Shown here: one piece after another, positions 53,988 through 60,504 of the stretch
Layout of the letters: each line of letters starts with the position of its first letter
Position numbering within the stretch: the stretch's first letter is position 1
Source of the DNA: Halosimplex rubrum
Lineage (GTDB): Archaea; Halobacteriota; Halobacteria; Halobacteriales; Haloarculaceae
Direction of reading: 5' to 3'
DNA length: 64,000 nt
Assembly: GCF_013415885.1 (NCBI RefSeq)
Contig: NZ_CP058910.1
Coordinates: forward strand, 2,914,001-2,978,000
Program-made: the position numbers and the translations under genes
The notes under the pieces: model-generated
Database searches by the model: none
What the model saw: the letters and a program-made list of their open reading frames with translations, nothing else
Told to the model about the DNA's origin: nothing

Positions 53988-54676
53988 GTGTTCAGATAAG
54001 GATGAAGAGTGAGGCGGTACGTTTTCAAAGTGATCTATGCCCGAAAACGACCGCCTCGGTGGATGTTTGGACGAGATTGACTTAGCGTTTGTTGAACGCG
54101 AGGCGACACCGAAGCTGCTGATGAAGCTCAGTATTCAGCTGCATCTTGCTGGACTTTCGCTTTCGAATACTGTTTCGTTTCTAGAGGTATTCGGTGTCAA
54201 TCGTGCTCGTTCGACCGTTCACAACTGGGTTCACAAGGCCGATCTACAGCCGGAGGCTGGTCGGTCACCGGATCACGTTGCGGTTGACGAAACCGTGATC
54301 CGGATCGACGGCGAGCAGTACTGGCTGTACGCCGCCGTCGATCCCGATTCGAACGAATTACTCCACACGAAGCTTAAACCGACGAGAACGAACGCTCTCG
54401 CCGAGATGTTCTTCGGTGAACTCCGCGAGAAACACGATGTCGACGATGCCGTGTTTCTCGTCGACGGCGCCACTCCGCTGAAAGAAGCCTGCGACTGACA
54501 CGGCCTCGATTTCAGATACGAACGCCATGGAAATCGCAACAGCGTCGAACGTGTCTTTCGCGAGGTAAAACGCCGAACTAATTCGTTCTCAAACTGTTTC
54601 AGTCATGTCGATCCAGCAACCGCCGATGACTGGCTTAGCTCTTTCGCGTTCGCATGGAATCGGCTTATCTGAACAC
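53988..54676 (+). mobile_element. IS6-family element with a disabled transposase
   Basis: Terminal repeats GTGTTCAGATAAG and its complement lie at the two ends. An intervening transposase gene carries a stop codon. The left flank is a GC-rich palindromic stretch (53925-53985). No exact target duplication is seen next to the ends. Confidence 0.8.
54037..54672 (+). pseudogene. IS6-family transposase with one nonsense codon
   Basis: The first 153 codons (to 54498) encode the HTH, first Asp (VAVDETVIRI) and second Asp (FLVDGATPL). A TGA at 54496-54498 then interrupts. The same frame continues HGLDFRYERHGNRNSVERVFREVKRR, supplying the catalytic Glu, to a stop at 54672. A single base change would restore the gene. 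As it stands the Glu-containing third is not made. Confidence 0.85.
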
Positions 54677-54727: not shown

Positions 54728-54937
54728 ATGACCGACTACACCACCGTCTCGATCCCGAAGGACCTGGCCGACCGCGTCGACGAGACCATCGAGGGGACGA
54801 GCTTCTCCTCGACGAGCGACCTCGTTCGCTTTCTCCTGCGGAGCATCGTCATCCAGAACCAGCAGCAGGGCGAGCTGACCGAGGCGGAGTTCTCCGAGAT
54901 CGCCGACCAGCTCGAAGACCTGGGCTATCTCGACTGA
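54728..54937 (+). CDS. Ribbon-helix-helix DNA-binding protein (CopG/Arc-like)
   Basis: 69 residues: YTTVSIPKDLADRVDETIEG (strand and helix 1), SFSSTSDLVRFLLRSIVI (helix 2), then an acidic tail (TEAEFSEIADQLEDLGYLD). The order fits the ribbon-helix-helix family of dimeric repressors. Small RHH proteins may repress their own promoter or act as antitoxins. No toxin-like gene lies downstream on the same strand. The ATG is 52 bases after the IS6 element. Confidence 0.75.
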   Translation: MTDYTTVSIPKDLADRVDETIEGTSFSSTSDLVRFLLRSIVIQNQQQGELTEAEFSEIADQLEDLGYLD

Positions 54938-56521: not shown

Positions 56522-56633
56522 ACCCGCCCCCTCGCGGTCGACCGAGAAAAAGGTGTGTCCGACGGGTGGCGTCGGTCGTGATGAGAACGGTCGGGGACGC
56601 AAAGGTCGCGCAGTCGTCCGCCGAAATCAGACT

Positions 56634-56783
56634 CGGACAATTGACGAACTCGAAGTCTCCCGCCACACCATCAACCGCTACAAAACCGCCTTCGCAGACA
56701 TGACCCCCACAGAAAGACTAACCCTCATCTCCTCTCTCACACAAGAAAAACTCCTCAACAAAGCAAATGGAGGAGAACAATAG
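56634..56783 (+). pseudogene. C-terminal fragment of a helix-turn-helix protein
   Basis: The frame ending at 56783 reads RTIDELEVSRHTINRYKTAFADM, TPTERLTLISSLTQEKLLNK, ANGGEQ: an HTH followed by a helix. The upstream part of the same frame is antisense to the DUF5779-like gene and not real coding. Base use changes sharply to A-rich codons here. It is probably a viral or plasmid gene fragment joined to chromosome at about 56630. Confidence 0.5.
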
Positions 56784-56976
56784 TGGCTTACGAACGGCCA
56801 AGCACAGATTTTGGATAGGAATGATGAGGAAGGTCAACCGACTGAAGGCCTAAGAAGTGTATATACGGACTGGAGGGACTCATTATCAGGTAACGGAGTA
56901 GGATTCAACAGCGATACCTCATTGAGTAGTATAAACAGTGAGGTAACAAGATAGTGAAATATAGGGGAGAAGAGTT
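56784..56976. other. AT-rich gap without a gene
   Basis: No coding frame is seen. The composition is clearly lower in GC than the genes on both sides and continues the foreign-looking stretch that extends into the next gene. Confidence 0.5.
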
Positions 56977-58758
56977 TTAAGCTGCTTCAGTCTCTAAGAT
57001 GGCCTTTGCATCGTCAAATTGGCCATTTTTGTCCCCCCATATTTGGTTAACTGTTGCTCTCTCCACACCTTCAATAGTCCATGGATTATCTACAGTACCC
57101 CCTATCACATAGTTTTCATCTTTGTCTGATACCATTTCATTAAGCATTTTAGAATGGGACTTAATTTTCTCGAATGTATCAGAATCAGTTTCTTCATAAT
57201 TATTCCAGAACCTTATCTTATCAGTTAGATCAATAATATAATCATTAGTAACTGATACATTAATATCATTGAATAAACCTCTGCCTGGTTCAGGGTTCTG
57301 CTCACTCTGTATTGAATCACTCCAACCTGTAGCTACACTTCTAAGCACAGAAGCAGCATACTTCTTAGCAACACCAAACCCAATTTCATTAAACCCTTCC
57401 GCTACCTCCCTCTCCTCGCTTCTATATTCGTCTGCAAATCTTAGTGGGTGATACCATTCGTCGGAGGCAGAGTGTTCCATGTCGAGGTAGTCTGATTCTT
57501 CTATTCGTGGGTGGAAGGTATCATTATTTGTCACTGGGGTATCATGTGATTCTACCAGTAGCATTTCGTTGTTGGTTTTGTCGTATGCTAGGCCGTTTCC
57601 GTGTGTAGATGCTGGGGCTTCCGGTAGATTGACTTCCCAGAACTGTGATTCTATGTCTGTGTGGTCGTCTATTCCTTTCTGAAGTACTGCTGCATACATC
57701 TGGTCTTCATCGGAGCGAGGTCCGGGACCTGGATAACGGAGTTGGAATTCGAAGAGGTATGGGTGAAGCCAGTCTAATGCTTCGGATAGTGTATCTGCAT
57801 TAGAAAATTTATCGTAGTTAAATTCTCCTTTATCCCCACTGATAGTGCCATCCCCATCATTCTGCACATTATTATTGGGGTACTGATTTGTACGCGGATT
57901 TTCCATCGCTTCTCTTGCACGATTTTCTGCCTCTTCGAGTGGGCCGATGCTTTCTACGAAGTCGATGGCTTCTTGTGGGTTTCCGGCGACGCCTCCGTCT
58001 CCTTGGTACGGGTAGTCGTTGTCGTGGTGCCATTCCCATGCAGCCAAATCAATTTCTTTGTCGTAGTGTTCTACGCCGTCCGGTGTATCGTACTGGTTGA
58101 GTACCGGCGAGTCTGTTATCTCTGTCTGTCCGACTTGTTCTTCGAAGTAGTCTTCCCCATACTGGTTTTTGGCTTCGTCTCTGAGGTCTTCGTTTTTCTC
58201 ATGCACCCAGTTTACTAGATGTGTTTCCGGTGTCTGTTTGGCTATTCCCACTGGATCCGACTGGATTTGAGTGTCGTCTTCGGTCACTCCCGAGACAGAG
58301 ATCCGATTCTCGCCTGCGTTCAGCTGAGCCGGATTCACCGAGACCGTGACCTCTGCATCGTTGTCCACTTCGATCTCCCGTAGAACCGACTCGTCGGTGC
58401 GAAGTTGGAGTTGCTGGACCTGTTCCCCGCTCACCGTCCCGGGAACGGTCACCGCTACCTGATACGAATCGATGGTGTCGTCCGCTTCCCAGATCGGCGG
58501 TAACGAGATCCGCCCGGAATCCGATTCGCCCGGTGTCTCCACCTGAAATTCGATCTGGACTGGTGTGTTCGGCGGTGTCCCGGTCGGTGTCTCCGCGTCC
58601 GTCTCGCTCGGGGTCGCCGTCGGTCGTTCAGTAGGGGTGTCCTGGCCGGAATCCGTCGATCGGGTGTCGTTCCCCAGGTTCTGACACCCCGCGACAGATC
58701 CGACCCCAGCCAGCGAAAGCGCAGCGAGGAAGCGTCGCCGCTCCCAGCCCTCGGTCAT
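56977..58758 (-). CDS. Tat lipoprotein with a foreign-looking AT-rich C-terminal domain
   Basis: 593 residues from ATG 58758 (MTEGWERRRFLAALSLAG). Twin-arginine signal and lipobox (GSVAGC) are followed by a Thr/Pro-rich linker (about 26-65). A beta-sandwich-like domain (about 66-165; SYQVAVTVPGTVSGEQVQQL, EVTVSVNPAQLNAGENRISVSG) comes next, then a long unrecognised domain (about 170-593) rich in Asn, Tyr and Trp (HLVNWVHEKNEDLRD, DWLHPYLFEFQLRYPGPGPR, WYHPLRFADEYRSEEREVAEGF). The DNA for the first domain is GC-rich, whereas the rest is AT-rich. The protein should be anchored at the cell surface. Function unknown. Confidence 0.75.
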   Translation of the reverse strand: MTEGWERRRFLAALSLAGVGSVAGCQNLGNDTRSTDSGQDTPTERPTATPSETDAETPTGTPPNTPVQIEFQVETPGESDSGRISLPPIWEADDTIDSYQVAVTVPGTVSGEQVQQLQLRTDESVLREIEVDNDAEVTVSVNPAQLNAGENRISVSGVTEDDTQIQSDPVGIAKQTPETHLVNWVHEKNEDLRDEAKNQYGEDYFEEQVGQTEITDSPVLNQYDTPDGVEHYDKEIDLAAWEWHHDNDYPYQGDGGVAGNPQEAIDFVESIGPLEEAENRAREAMENPRTNQYPNNNVQNDGDGTISGDKGEFNYDKFSNADTLSEALDWLHPYLFEFQLRYPGPGPRSDEDQMYAAVLQKGIDDHTDIESQFWEVNLPEAPASTHGNGLAYDKTNNEMLLVESHDTPVTNNDTFHPRIEESDYLDMEHSASDEWYHPLRFADEYRSEEREVAEGFNEIGFGVAKKYAASVLRSVATGWSDSIQSEQNPEPGRGLFNDINVSVTNDYIIDLTDKIRFWNNYEETDSDTFEKIKSHSKMLNEMVSDKDENYVIGGTVDNPWTIEGVERATVNQIWGDKNGQFDDAKAILETEAA

Positions 58759-58891: not shown

Positions 58892-59722
58892 ATGGGTACC
58901 GAGTCTGAAGAGGATATAAAGAGCGGTCTGTCCAAGCGGGAAGCTCTCGCTCTGACTCGGTTAGCCGGTCGGAACGAGACCATCGTGACGATCGACGACA
59001 TCGAATCGGTGCTCGGTTGCTCCCGTACCGCGGCGAAGAAGATCGCCAGCAATCTCGAAGACAAGAAGTGGTTGGACCGACTGAAACGGGGCACCTATCT
59101 GATCGTCCCGCTCGCTGCGGGAGAACGCGGCGAGTACACCGAACACGAGTACGTCATCGCCTCGCATCTCGCGGAGCCGATGTATCTCTCCTACTGGACC
59201 GCGCTGAACTACCACGGACTGACGGAGCAGGTCCCGACGACCGTCTTCGCGGCCACGACCGGCCGAGTCCCCGACCGGGAGATCCACGGCGTCACGTACC
59301 GGTTCGTCACCGTCACCGACGGGAAGTTCTTCGGCCACGAACCCGTCTCGATCCGCTCTCAGACGGTCGATGTCGCCGCCAGGGAGAAGGCGCTGGTCGA
59401 CTGCGCCGACCACCCGGAACACTGCGGCGGGATCGTGGAACTCGCGAAGGCGCTGGACGGCGCCGCCGACCTCGATACCGAACGCCTGGTCGACTACGTG
59501 CTGAGACTGGGCAACGGCGCAGCGGTCAAGCGGATCGTCTACCTCGCCGATACGCTCGGTGTCGAACTCCCGCAGCGGGACGAACTGGAAGCGGGGTTTA
59601 CCAGCGGGTATTCGAAACTCGATCCCACGAGAGGCGACGACGGGACACACAGCAGCGAGTATCGGTTACTGCTGAACGTCTCGACGGACGAAATCGAGAC
59701 CGCGGGAGGTCGGTTCCGATGA
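58892..59722 (+). CDS. AbiEi-type antitoxin / transcriptional regulator
   Basis: 276 residues. An N-terminal winged-helix domain (about 10-85: LSKREALALTRLAGR, VLGCSRTAAKKIASNLEDKKWLDRLKRGTYLI) is followed by the AbiEi antitoxin domain: YVIASHLAEPMYLSYWTALNYHGLTEQVPTTVFAATTGR, GVTYRFVTV, VSIRSQTVDVAAREKALVDCADHP. In the AbiE type IV toxin-antitoxin system this protein represses the operon and counteracts the toxin. It overlaps the toxin gene by four bases (ATGA). A palindromic TATA region precedes it. Confidence 0.88.
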   Translation: MGTESEEDIKSGLSKREALALTRLAGRNETIVTIDDIESVLGCSRTAAKKIASNLEDKKWLDRLKRGTYLIVPLAAGERGEYTEHEYVIASHLAEPMYLSYWTALNYHGLTEQVPTTVFAATTGRVPDREIHGVTYRFVTVTDGKFFGHEPVSIRSQTVDVAAREKALVDCADHPEHCGGIVELAKALDGAADLDTERLVDYVLRLGNGAAVKRIVYLADTLGVELPQRDELEAGFTSGYSKLDPTRGDDGTHSSEYRLLLNVSTDEIETAGGRFR

Positions 59723-60504
59723 TCTCCGAGGCGCGTGTCCGCACACTGGCGCGGCAGGACGGCGTCACCGCTGGGTTGGCCGAGAAGAACTACGTCAACT
59801 CGTGGATCCTCTACGCGCTTTACAGGTCGGACATCGATGGACTGGTGTTCAAGGGCGGAACCGCACTGAGCAAGCTGTACTTCCCGGAACTGTGGCGGTT
59901 CTCCGAAGATCTCGATTTCACCGCTACCGAGGACATCTCCGACCTCCCTAGCCGTCTGGAGACCGCGATAAACGGTATCGAGGGTCGGTCGGGGATCCGA
60001 TTCGAGATAACGAGCTATCACGAGGCAGGAACTCCGGTCGAATACCTCCAGGTGAAGATCCAGTACGACGCCGTGCTCGGACAGCGAAATACGACGGATC
60101 TCGACATCACGTTCGCCGAGCCGCTGGCGTTCCAGCCGGTCGAACACACCCACCGCTTCGAAGATGTCCCGGAGTTCCAACTGTCGGCGTACAGCGTCGA
60201 AGAGATCTTCGTCGAGAAACTGCGGAGCATCTACCAGAGAGCCCGAGCGAGGGACTACTACGACCTCTACCGGCTGATGGAACACCACGAATTCGAATCA
60301 GACGTGATCGCAGACGCTCTGCGGACGAAAGCGAGCAGTCAGGATGTCGAACTTCGATTGGATACTGGGATTCCGGACGGAGATCGGGAAGCCGTAGAAG
60401 CGTACTGGGACCGAGCACTCGACCGACTCGTAACCGAGAAACCGGAGTTCGATCGAGTGGTCGAGCAGGTCGATACGTATCTGAAACGTCTCTCGGACCG
60501 ATAA
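59719..60504 (+). CDS. AbiEii/AbiGii-type nucleotidyltransferase toxin
   Basis: 261 residues. The nucleotidyltransferase motif is GGTALSKLYFPELWRFSEDLDFTA (conserved GGTAL ... ED-L-D). FAEPLAFQPVEHTHRF, LSAYSVEEIFVEKLRSIYQRARARDYYDLYRL is the following conserved helix with the Lys and Arg-Asp-x-x-Asp set. AbiEii enzymes arrest growth, and related MenT toxins modify tRNA ends. The ATG at 59719 overlaps the antitoxin stop. An earlier in-frame start (59017) would place 234 unrelated residues antisense-like within the antitoxin gene and is rejected. The role could be phage defence or stabilising mobile DNA. Confidence 0.9.
   Translation: MISEARVRTLARQDGVTAGLAEKNYVNSWILYALYRSDIDGLVFKGGTALSKLYFPELWRFSEDLDFTATEDISDLPSRLETAINGIEGRSGIRFEITSYHEAGTPVEYLQVKIQYDAVLGQRNTTDLDITFAEPLAFQPVEHTHRFEDVPEFQLSAYSVEEIFVEKLRSIYQRARARDYYDLYRLMEHHEFESDVIADALRTKASSQDVELRLDTGIPDGDREAVEAYWDRALDRLVTEKPEFDRVVEQVDTYLKRLSDR

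What the first reader, a model, noticed from the sequence alone, without database searches (positions are those of the whole stretch)
56977..58758. Chimeric lipoprotein: GC-rich native front, AT-rich foreign body
The first third has normal haloarchaeal codons, Tat signal, linker and sandwich domain. From about codon 165 onward the third positions turn AT-rich (TCT, ATT, TTT, AAT), and this continues into the gap and HTH fragment to 56630. It looks as if a foreign gene was joined in frame to a native secretion module, a way to make a new surface protein.
Basis: partly seen in the sequence, partly recalled or inferred. Interest (0 to 1): 0.55.

Follow-up and report, generated by a model that had tools for sequence, protein, structure and literature searches.

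The report
Archaeal surface lipoprotein with swapped body
A salt-loving archaeon carries a surface protein whose front end looks home-made while the rest looks borrowed from a low-GC source; relatives show that this rear part has been swapped between strains and species, and related genes sit in a surface-gene cluster of tiny archaea that live attached to salt-loving archaea.

Summary
The 593-codon gene (58758-56977, minus strand) drops from GC3 0.73 (codons 1-162) to 0.41 (163-593), and AGA/AGG rises from 0/9 to 9/14 Arg codons. It is not a one-off fusion: ten other genomes of a 392-genome order sample and 11 plasmid records (partly the same organisms) carry relatives, most with the full architecture. 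In several close pairs the front is nearly identical while the body is far more diverged at synonymous sites (dS 0.05-0.36 against 0.9-1.8 among four Halobacterium alleles). In two Haloarchaeobius-type genomes this happens inside syntenic DNA. Breaks cluster at the start of the body domain and at an FV(E/D)SIG block, where the window gene's best single step lies (codon 273). So bodies are exchanged by recombination. Two Nanohaloarchaea (DPANN ectosymbionts of haloarchaea) hold full-length copies, at home in composition, between large secreted Cys-rich proteins; two Halobacterium plasmid loci keep a 5'-truncated copy of one of these neighbours at the same place. They are a likely donor pool for part of the family. 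For the window gene the donor is inferred from codon usage only. Function is unknown; I favour a surface recognition protein. Family and structure searches gave nothing usable.

The parts
56977..58758 (-). whole gene, 593 aa, lipoprotein with exchangeable body
58684..58758 (-). Tat-type signal and lipobox (residues 1-25, ends ...SVAGC)
   Evidence: read from the sequence; TIGR01409 only sub-threshold (12.4 of 16.7 bits)
58558..58683 (-). Thr/Pro/Asp-rich linker (residues 26-67)
58249..58557 (-). putative beta-sandwich domain (residues 68-170), present in 13 of 17 aligned relatives, absent in L010, L011, L013, L028
   Evidence: alignment; weak Glucodextran_B hit; low-confidence strands
56980..58233 (-). 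body domain (residues 176-593), the part shared with relatives that lack the sandwich
57943..57960 (-). FVESIG anchor (residues 267-272); recurrent break in relatives; single best GC3 step of this gene at codon 273
57592..57603 (-). HGNG conserved block (residues 386-389)
57436..57453 (-). YHPLRF conserved block (residues 436-441); near another break in relatives (L013 GC3 step; L023/L037 pair)
56631..56976 (.). AT-rich tail after the gene with remains of a plus-strand HTH-like ORF (56631-56783)
   Evidence: no Pfam hit

Best explanation
This is a Tat-exported, probably lipid-anchored surface protein of a rare, horizontally spread family. Its body (from about residue 163-176 on) is exchanged between alleles by recombination at short conserved anchors, while the signal, linker and sandwich front are kept. 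In the window the front has the codon usage of haloarchaeal genes and the rest that of a low-GC donor, most like nanohaloarchaea among the three tables compared. Shown: the composition and codon switch; related full-length genes; front/body discontinuity of dS and conflicting trees in relatives; body replaced inside otherwise syntenic DNA; relatives in a nanohaloarchaeal surface locus; a truncated piece of that locus in two Halobacterium plasmid loci and a shorter piece in one Haloferax. Inferred: homologous recombination as the mechanism; that the window copy itself had its body exchanged; a nanohaloarchaeal donor for it; and the role, most likely a variable surface recognition/binding protein acting between cells (symbiont-host or kin), my confidence in that role being about 0.3.
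For: GC3 and codon switch. Of 13 pairs that I chose for dS, 8 have the body at least 1.7 times as diverged as the front (for example 0.17/1.35, 0.14/1.29, 0.05/1.11), 2 the reverse (L023/L018 1.90/1.06; L014/L021 front not computable, body 1.05) and 3 no clear difference. Four Halobacterium alleles, six pairs: front 0.05-0.36, body 0.94-1.78. L031 against L066: flanks and front 80-97% identical per 100 bases, body 43-93% (mostly 53-76%), GC about 0.6-0.76 in front, 0.37-0.57 in the body, 0.62-0.77 after it. Front and body trees of 12 genes reject each other (AU p 4e-47 and 8e-5). Of 136 pairs 15 pass the filter; their breaks lie at the start of the body (6), at SIG (5), in the linker (2), at HAW (1) and just after WHPLRF (1). 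Nanohaloarchaeal genes have GC3 0.49 against neighbours at 0.48 and 0.43; haloarchaeal copies 0.43-0.62 against 0.59-0.86, lower in 19 of 19 loci. Nanohaloarchaeal neighbours and their pieces in Halobacterium and Hfx gibbonsii.
Against: No close relative of the window copy exists in the samples (best 44% identity; 0 of 7 other genomes of its genus), so exchange was not seen in the window lineage itself. Its GC3 profile also fits a stepwise decline. The AGA/AGG excess over low-GC3 haloarchaeal genes is modest (p 0.02) and the ATA excess not significant (p 0.09); other low-GC donors were not compared. No trace of the nanohaloarchaeal neighbour lies beside the window gene, and of 12 haloarchaeal loci tested only 3 (L024, L026, L037) have one. 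The BNX82 plasmid copy is not specially close to the G512 copy (57-58% aa). Three of 13 pairs show no front/body contrast. Function is untested.
Confidence: 0.7

Rival explanations
1. The whole gene entered from one low-GC source and only the front has been replaced or ameliorated towards host composition; no body exchange is needed in the window lineage.
For: In most relatives the whole gene has low GC3 with no step (11 of 17); front modules can differ more than bodies (L014/L021 dN 0.37 against 0.13).
Against: Amelioration acts on whole genes and would not stop at codon 163-273; dS discontinuities in close pairs show segment replacement, mostly of the body.
Confidence: 0.2
2. A polymorphic toxin-like or halocin-like antagonistic protein: constant export front, variable effector end.
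For: Constant front and variable C-terminal part, low GC of the variable part, plasmid location of many copies; in three other nanohaloarchaea the slot between the secreted proteins is filled by different Tat-type proteins.
Against: No neighbour family is shared by more than 6 of 21 loci compared, so no constant immunity-like partner; no PADLOC hit; bodies of most members are homologous rather than unrelated toxin domains; no standalone cassettes among the listed matches.
Confidence: 0.15
3. Antigenic-variation-like switching from silent cassettes inside one genome.
For: Hypervariable patches between conserved blocks.
Against: Profile searches of the own genome and of 16 other genomes or records listed only whole copies, matches confined to the shared N-terminal part, and one frameshifted end in G026 (the list is capped, best first).
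Confidence: 0.03
4. Diversifying selection alone on a clonally inherited surface protein, for example under virus attack.
For: Variable loops alternate with conserved blocks.
Against: Synonymous sites are just as discontinuous (dS 0.05-0.36 against 0.9-1.8), which protein-level selection does not produce.
Confidence: 0.05

Closest known systems
VARTIG modules of Thermococcales (PMC8416519; abstract and sections 12, 13 seen)
   Same: Archaeal exported protein with a conserved front and a C-terminal region diversified by recombination between species.
   Different: VARTIG proteins are large multi-Ig proteins with short recombining partner genes nearby; here no partner genes were found, no Ig family matched, and hosts are haloarchaea and nanohaloarchaea.
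Polymorphic toxin systems (PMC3482391; search listing and start of abstract only)
   Same: Constant export part and variable C-terminal end exchanged by recombination.
   Different: No constant immunity-like neighbour or cassette found, and the bodies are homologous alleles.
Nanohaloarchaeal surface proteins proposed for host attachment (PMC10266531; passages and section 10 part 1 seen)
   Same: Secreted or membrane-bound proteins thought to mediate symbiont-host contact; the present family lies beside large secreted Cys-rich proteins in these genomes.
   Different: The word lipoprotein does not occur in that paper's main text.

Membership tests
Tat lipoprotein | twin-arginine motif, hydrophobic stretch, lipobox cysteine (motifs recalled, read by eye) | tested here: met
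   sequence; R8, L11, G24, C25 invariant in 14 aligned members; but the curated model TIGR01409 stays below its cut-off
VARTIG | homology to arCOG07710 / C-terminal Ig domain | tested here: inconclusive
   no plausible Pfam match in 14 members, best E 0.0034 (Red1, one member); arCOG07710 itself not compared
VARTIG | C-terminal region recombining between species | tested here: met
   (relatives, not the window copy)
VARTIG | companion short genes homologous to the C-terminal region | tested here: not met
   no partial body genes listed in own genome or 16 others, apart from a frameshifted end in G026
Polymorphic toxin system | unrelated toxin domains at the C-terminus with immunity gene next to it | tested here: not met
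   bodies homologous; no neighbour family in more than 6 of 21 loci
Silent-cassette antigenic variation | silent partial copies in the same genome | tested here: not met
Transglutaminase-like fold | profile similarity to Transglut_core proteins | tested here: not met
   hhalign probability 0.6% against 22 haloarchaeal domains
Diversity-generating retroelement target | adenine-specific changes with a nearby template repeat and reverse transcriptase | not tested
   -

The most novel reading that the evidence does not exclude
Haloarchaea capture, from the DPANN ectosymbionts that attach to them, the variable Tat lipoprotein of the symbiont's surface locus, keep their own front and keep swapping bodies, and use it as a decoy, exclusion or recognition factor in the symbiont-host contact.
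Probability: 0.15. Interest if true: 0.87.

Novelty: new variant of a known kind. Interest (0 to 1): 0.6.

Why it matters
It gives a clear case, with mapped joints, of body swapping in an archaeal surface protein, and links haloarchaeal plasmids to a surface locus of their nano-sized ectosymbionts. Gene flow between DPANN symbionts and hosts and the molecules of their contact are open questions. A cultivated host (Haloferax BNX82) carries a copy on a plasmid, and a genome that by size may be its symbiont carries another, so the question can be tested in a co-culture.

Tried and rejected
Transglutaminase-like fold: suggested to me by the HAW...HGNGL...MET pattern; hhalign gave 0.6%, dropped. 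Structure: two AlphaFold2 jobs with 9 sequences each gave pLDDT 41.4 and 41.5; I made no fold search, since such models give meaningless matches. Virus origin: no match in phage records or in viral contigs. Silent cassettes: none listed. A fixed site-specific joint: I first thought the SIG block was the only joint; the pair scan showed several anchors, so I now read it as recombination at conserved blocks. Direct recent exchange between host BNX82 and the G512 genome: not seen. Interrupted remnants of the nanohaloarchaeal neighbour in Halobacterium: I had read the 214- and 204-codon ORFs as broken frames, but one search shows the matching stretch of 433-449 codons free of stops in L024 and L026; it is 5'-truncated instead. 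Homology of the G504 body: seen only after G504 itself was added to the model, so not counted as shown. A degenerate inverted piece of the gene's variable region at 56850-56885: shuffle p 0.01, profile search no hit, left as unexplained. Dropped rows: the G157 hit (E 5e-4, two stops inside) is not counted as a relative; G514 and G520 match only the lipobox region and are not counted; one search lists only pairs with third-position identity of at least 0.75 on one side (its printed heading says 0.8) and LR above 20, 15 of 136; two of ten regions fetched (L143, L147) were too short and left out; duplicate loci of the same gene were not used as separate relatives.

Full report
What is there. The gene at 58758-56977 (minus strand) encodes 593 residues: Tat motif and lipobox, a Thr/Pro linker, a putative beta-sandwich (68-170) and a 418-residue body (176-593). 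In 14 aligned members the best Pfam E-value is 0.0034 (Red1, one member), the best NCBIfam one 0.035, and PADLOC gives none; the window protein itself passes no curated cut-off. PDB sequence searches gave no match with the protein and only three matches with E 0.58-1.5 with the profile. Next to it lie an AbiEi/AbiEii pair (58892-60504), an IS240-type transposase fragment and a ribbon-helix-helix protein.

Composition. GC3 falls from 0.73 (codons 1-162) to 0.55 (163-272), 0.42 (273-455) and 0.28 (456-593). One step at codon 273 is best by BIC (786.2); two steps at 163 and 456 give 788.8. Of 52 ORFs of the same genome in hand, this one has the largest step statistic. Codon tables, made from automatically called ORFs (11 resident GC-rich, 12 low-GC3 genes of the window, 72 nanohaloarchaeal), tell the same story: codons 1-162 fit the window's low-GC3 genes best (-1.133 per codon; GC-rich genes -1.180; nanohaloarchaeal -1.394), whereas the three later segments fit the nanohaloarchaeal table best. 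AGA/AGG is 0 of 9 Arg codons before and 9 of 14 after codon 162 (p 0.0026); 15 haloarchaeal neighbour genes with GC3 under 0.5 use it at 61/180 (p 0.02 for the excess). The AT-rich stretch runs on to about 56630.

Relatives. A body search of 392 genomes of the order found 12 with a match; one (G157) is spurious, so 11 including the own genome. A profile search of 391 genomes of the class found 15 including the own. Of 146 genomes of the family 2 match (the own and one other), and none of 7 others of the genus. Plasmids: 13 records, 11 with at least 80% of the query covered; some are versions of one plasmid or belong to genomes of the order sample. Phages and viral contigs: none. Of 17 relatives aligned, 13 have the sandwich; L010, L011, L013 and L028 lack it. 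So the fusion is old.

Body exchange. In L011/L010 dS is 0.17 before and 1.35 after the SIG block; in L024/L025 0.14 and 1.29; in L024/L026 0.05 and 1.11. Of the 13 pairs tested, 8 show a body at least 1.7 times as diverged as the front, 2 the reverse (L023/L018 1.90 and 1.06; L014/L021) and 3 no clear difference (L017/L018, L029/L026, L027/L026). Four Halobacterium alleles (GN101; R1; KBTZ01; and one shared by BOL4-2 and KBTZ01) give 0.05-0.36 and 0.94-1.78 in the six pairs. L031 and L066, from two genomes of one genus, hold the gene at the same place: front and flanks are 80-97% identical per 100 bases, the body as low as 43%, and GC falls at the SIG block and is back after the stop. Trees of front and body for 12 genes reject each other. 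In the 15 of 136 pairs that pass the filter, breaks lie at the start of the body (TPGNYK..VPERN, 6), at SIG (5), in the linker (2), at HAW (1) and just after WHPLRF (1), each with the N-terminal side more alike; these pairs are not independent. Significant GC3 steps occur in 7 of 18 genes (window included); 5 of the 7 have one within 10 codons of SIG: window, L010, L011 (these two share one locus), L021 (10 codons off) and L027 (weak, p 0.013). Searches of the own genome and of 16 other genomes or records listed no silent partial copies apart from a frameshifted end in G026 (capped list); exchange therefore seems to take place between cells, not within one genome.

Nanohaloarchaea. A relative turned up in Candidatus Nanohaloarchaea M3_22 (L035). 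In 28 genomes of its phylum 6 match at E 0.001; two of these (G514, G520) only in the lipobox region. Full-length relatives occur in 2 (G493 = M3_22, and G512), a diverged one in G519, and in G504 a related front whose body is not shown to be homologous. In G493 and G512 the gene has the GC3 of its neighbours or slightly more (0.49 against 0.48 and 0.43), and in G504 and G519 that of the adjacent secreted proteins (0.40 and 0.35 against 0.38-0.39), whereas haloarchaeal copies are poorer than their neighbours' mean in 19 of 19 loci. In G493, G512 and G504 the gene is convergent with a large secreted Cys-rich protein (842, 918 and 826 aa as called; 847 from a later start in G512), followed by a ~420-residue putative membrane protein, and has another large secreted Cys-rich protein on its other side; G519 has only the latter. 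The membrane protein is found in 24 of 28 genomes. Of eight further loci examined, three (G518, G510, G511) have the same frame of secreted proteins with other genes in the slot: two lipobox-type proteins in G511 and one Tat-like protein each in G518 and G510 (the Tat reading of the last two is by eye); the other five (G519, G509, G517, G513, G516) do not show this arrangement. Of 12 haloarchaeal loci tested, two Halobacterium loci (L024, L026) keep the last ~430 residues of the convergent protein at the same convergent place, free of stops but without its first half and with the first start codon only half-way, and Haloferax gibbonsii L037 about 100 residues; L025, L070, L027 and the remaining Haloferax and Halovenus loci have none. 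The whole protein in nanohaloarchaea and the truncated one in haloarchaea support transfer from nanohaloarchaea for that branch. The body tree mixes nanohaloarchaeal and haloarchaeal sequences, with the window beside G519 at 80% support on long branches. G512 has a contig of 1,046,959 bases, which fits the size implied for Ca. Nanohalovita BNXNv in PMC10266531 (64,343 bp being 6.15%); its host there is Haloferax lucentense BNX82, and L023 comes from a plasmid of a strain BNX82 filed as Haloferax alexandrinus. That identification is my inference, and the two copies are only 57-58% identical.

How it works. Best reading: an exported surface protein whose specificity-bearing body is renewed by recombination with related alleles arriving by horizontal transfer, nanohaloarchaea being one reservoir. 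Conserved blocks serve as recombination anchors. The molecular role is inferred: variable patches between conserved blocks, surface position and the nanohaloarchaeal locus suggest recognition between cells.

Known or new. VARTIG of Thermococcales is the closest published parallel (PMC8416519, abstract and sections 12-13 seen); its abstract states no counterparts outside Thermococcales. My paper searches (listings, open-licence papers only) showed no description of this family or of this transfer.

Noticed in passing
window 58892-60504 (+): AbiEi antitoxin / AbiEii toxin pair (Pfam AbiEi_4, AbiEi_1, AbiEii) directly upstream of the lipoprotein gene, divergent; the ten listed of 32 plasmid records matching this stretch match in AbiEi genes.
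   Followed up: partly
window 54037-54498 (+): Truncated IS240-type transposase (DDE_Tnp_IS240) followed by a ribbon-helix-helix protein at 54728-54937.
   Followed up: no
window 56631-56976 (+): HTH-like remnant, 64% identical to a Halobaculum limi plasmid protein, ends in a stop and the same frame stays open for 56 codons, part of which resembles residues 472-508 of the lipoprotein (shuffle p 0.01, profile search no hit).
   Followed up: partly
L141, L144, L145: Nanohaloarchaeal surface locus: between two large secreted Cys-rich proteins the slot holds different proteins in different genomes; two lipobox-type proteins of G511 share a linker stretch but not an evident body.
   Followed up: partly
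L068 9012-10300: The relative in G026 is frameshifted near its end and has its own GC3 step at PLRF.
   Followed up: no
L071 8196-9923, L025 7980-9641: H. salinarum KBTZ01 carries two different alleles on one plasmid; the 4,689 bases around one of them are identical to BOL4-2.
   Followed up: partly
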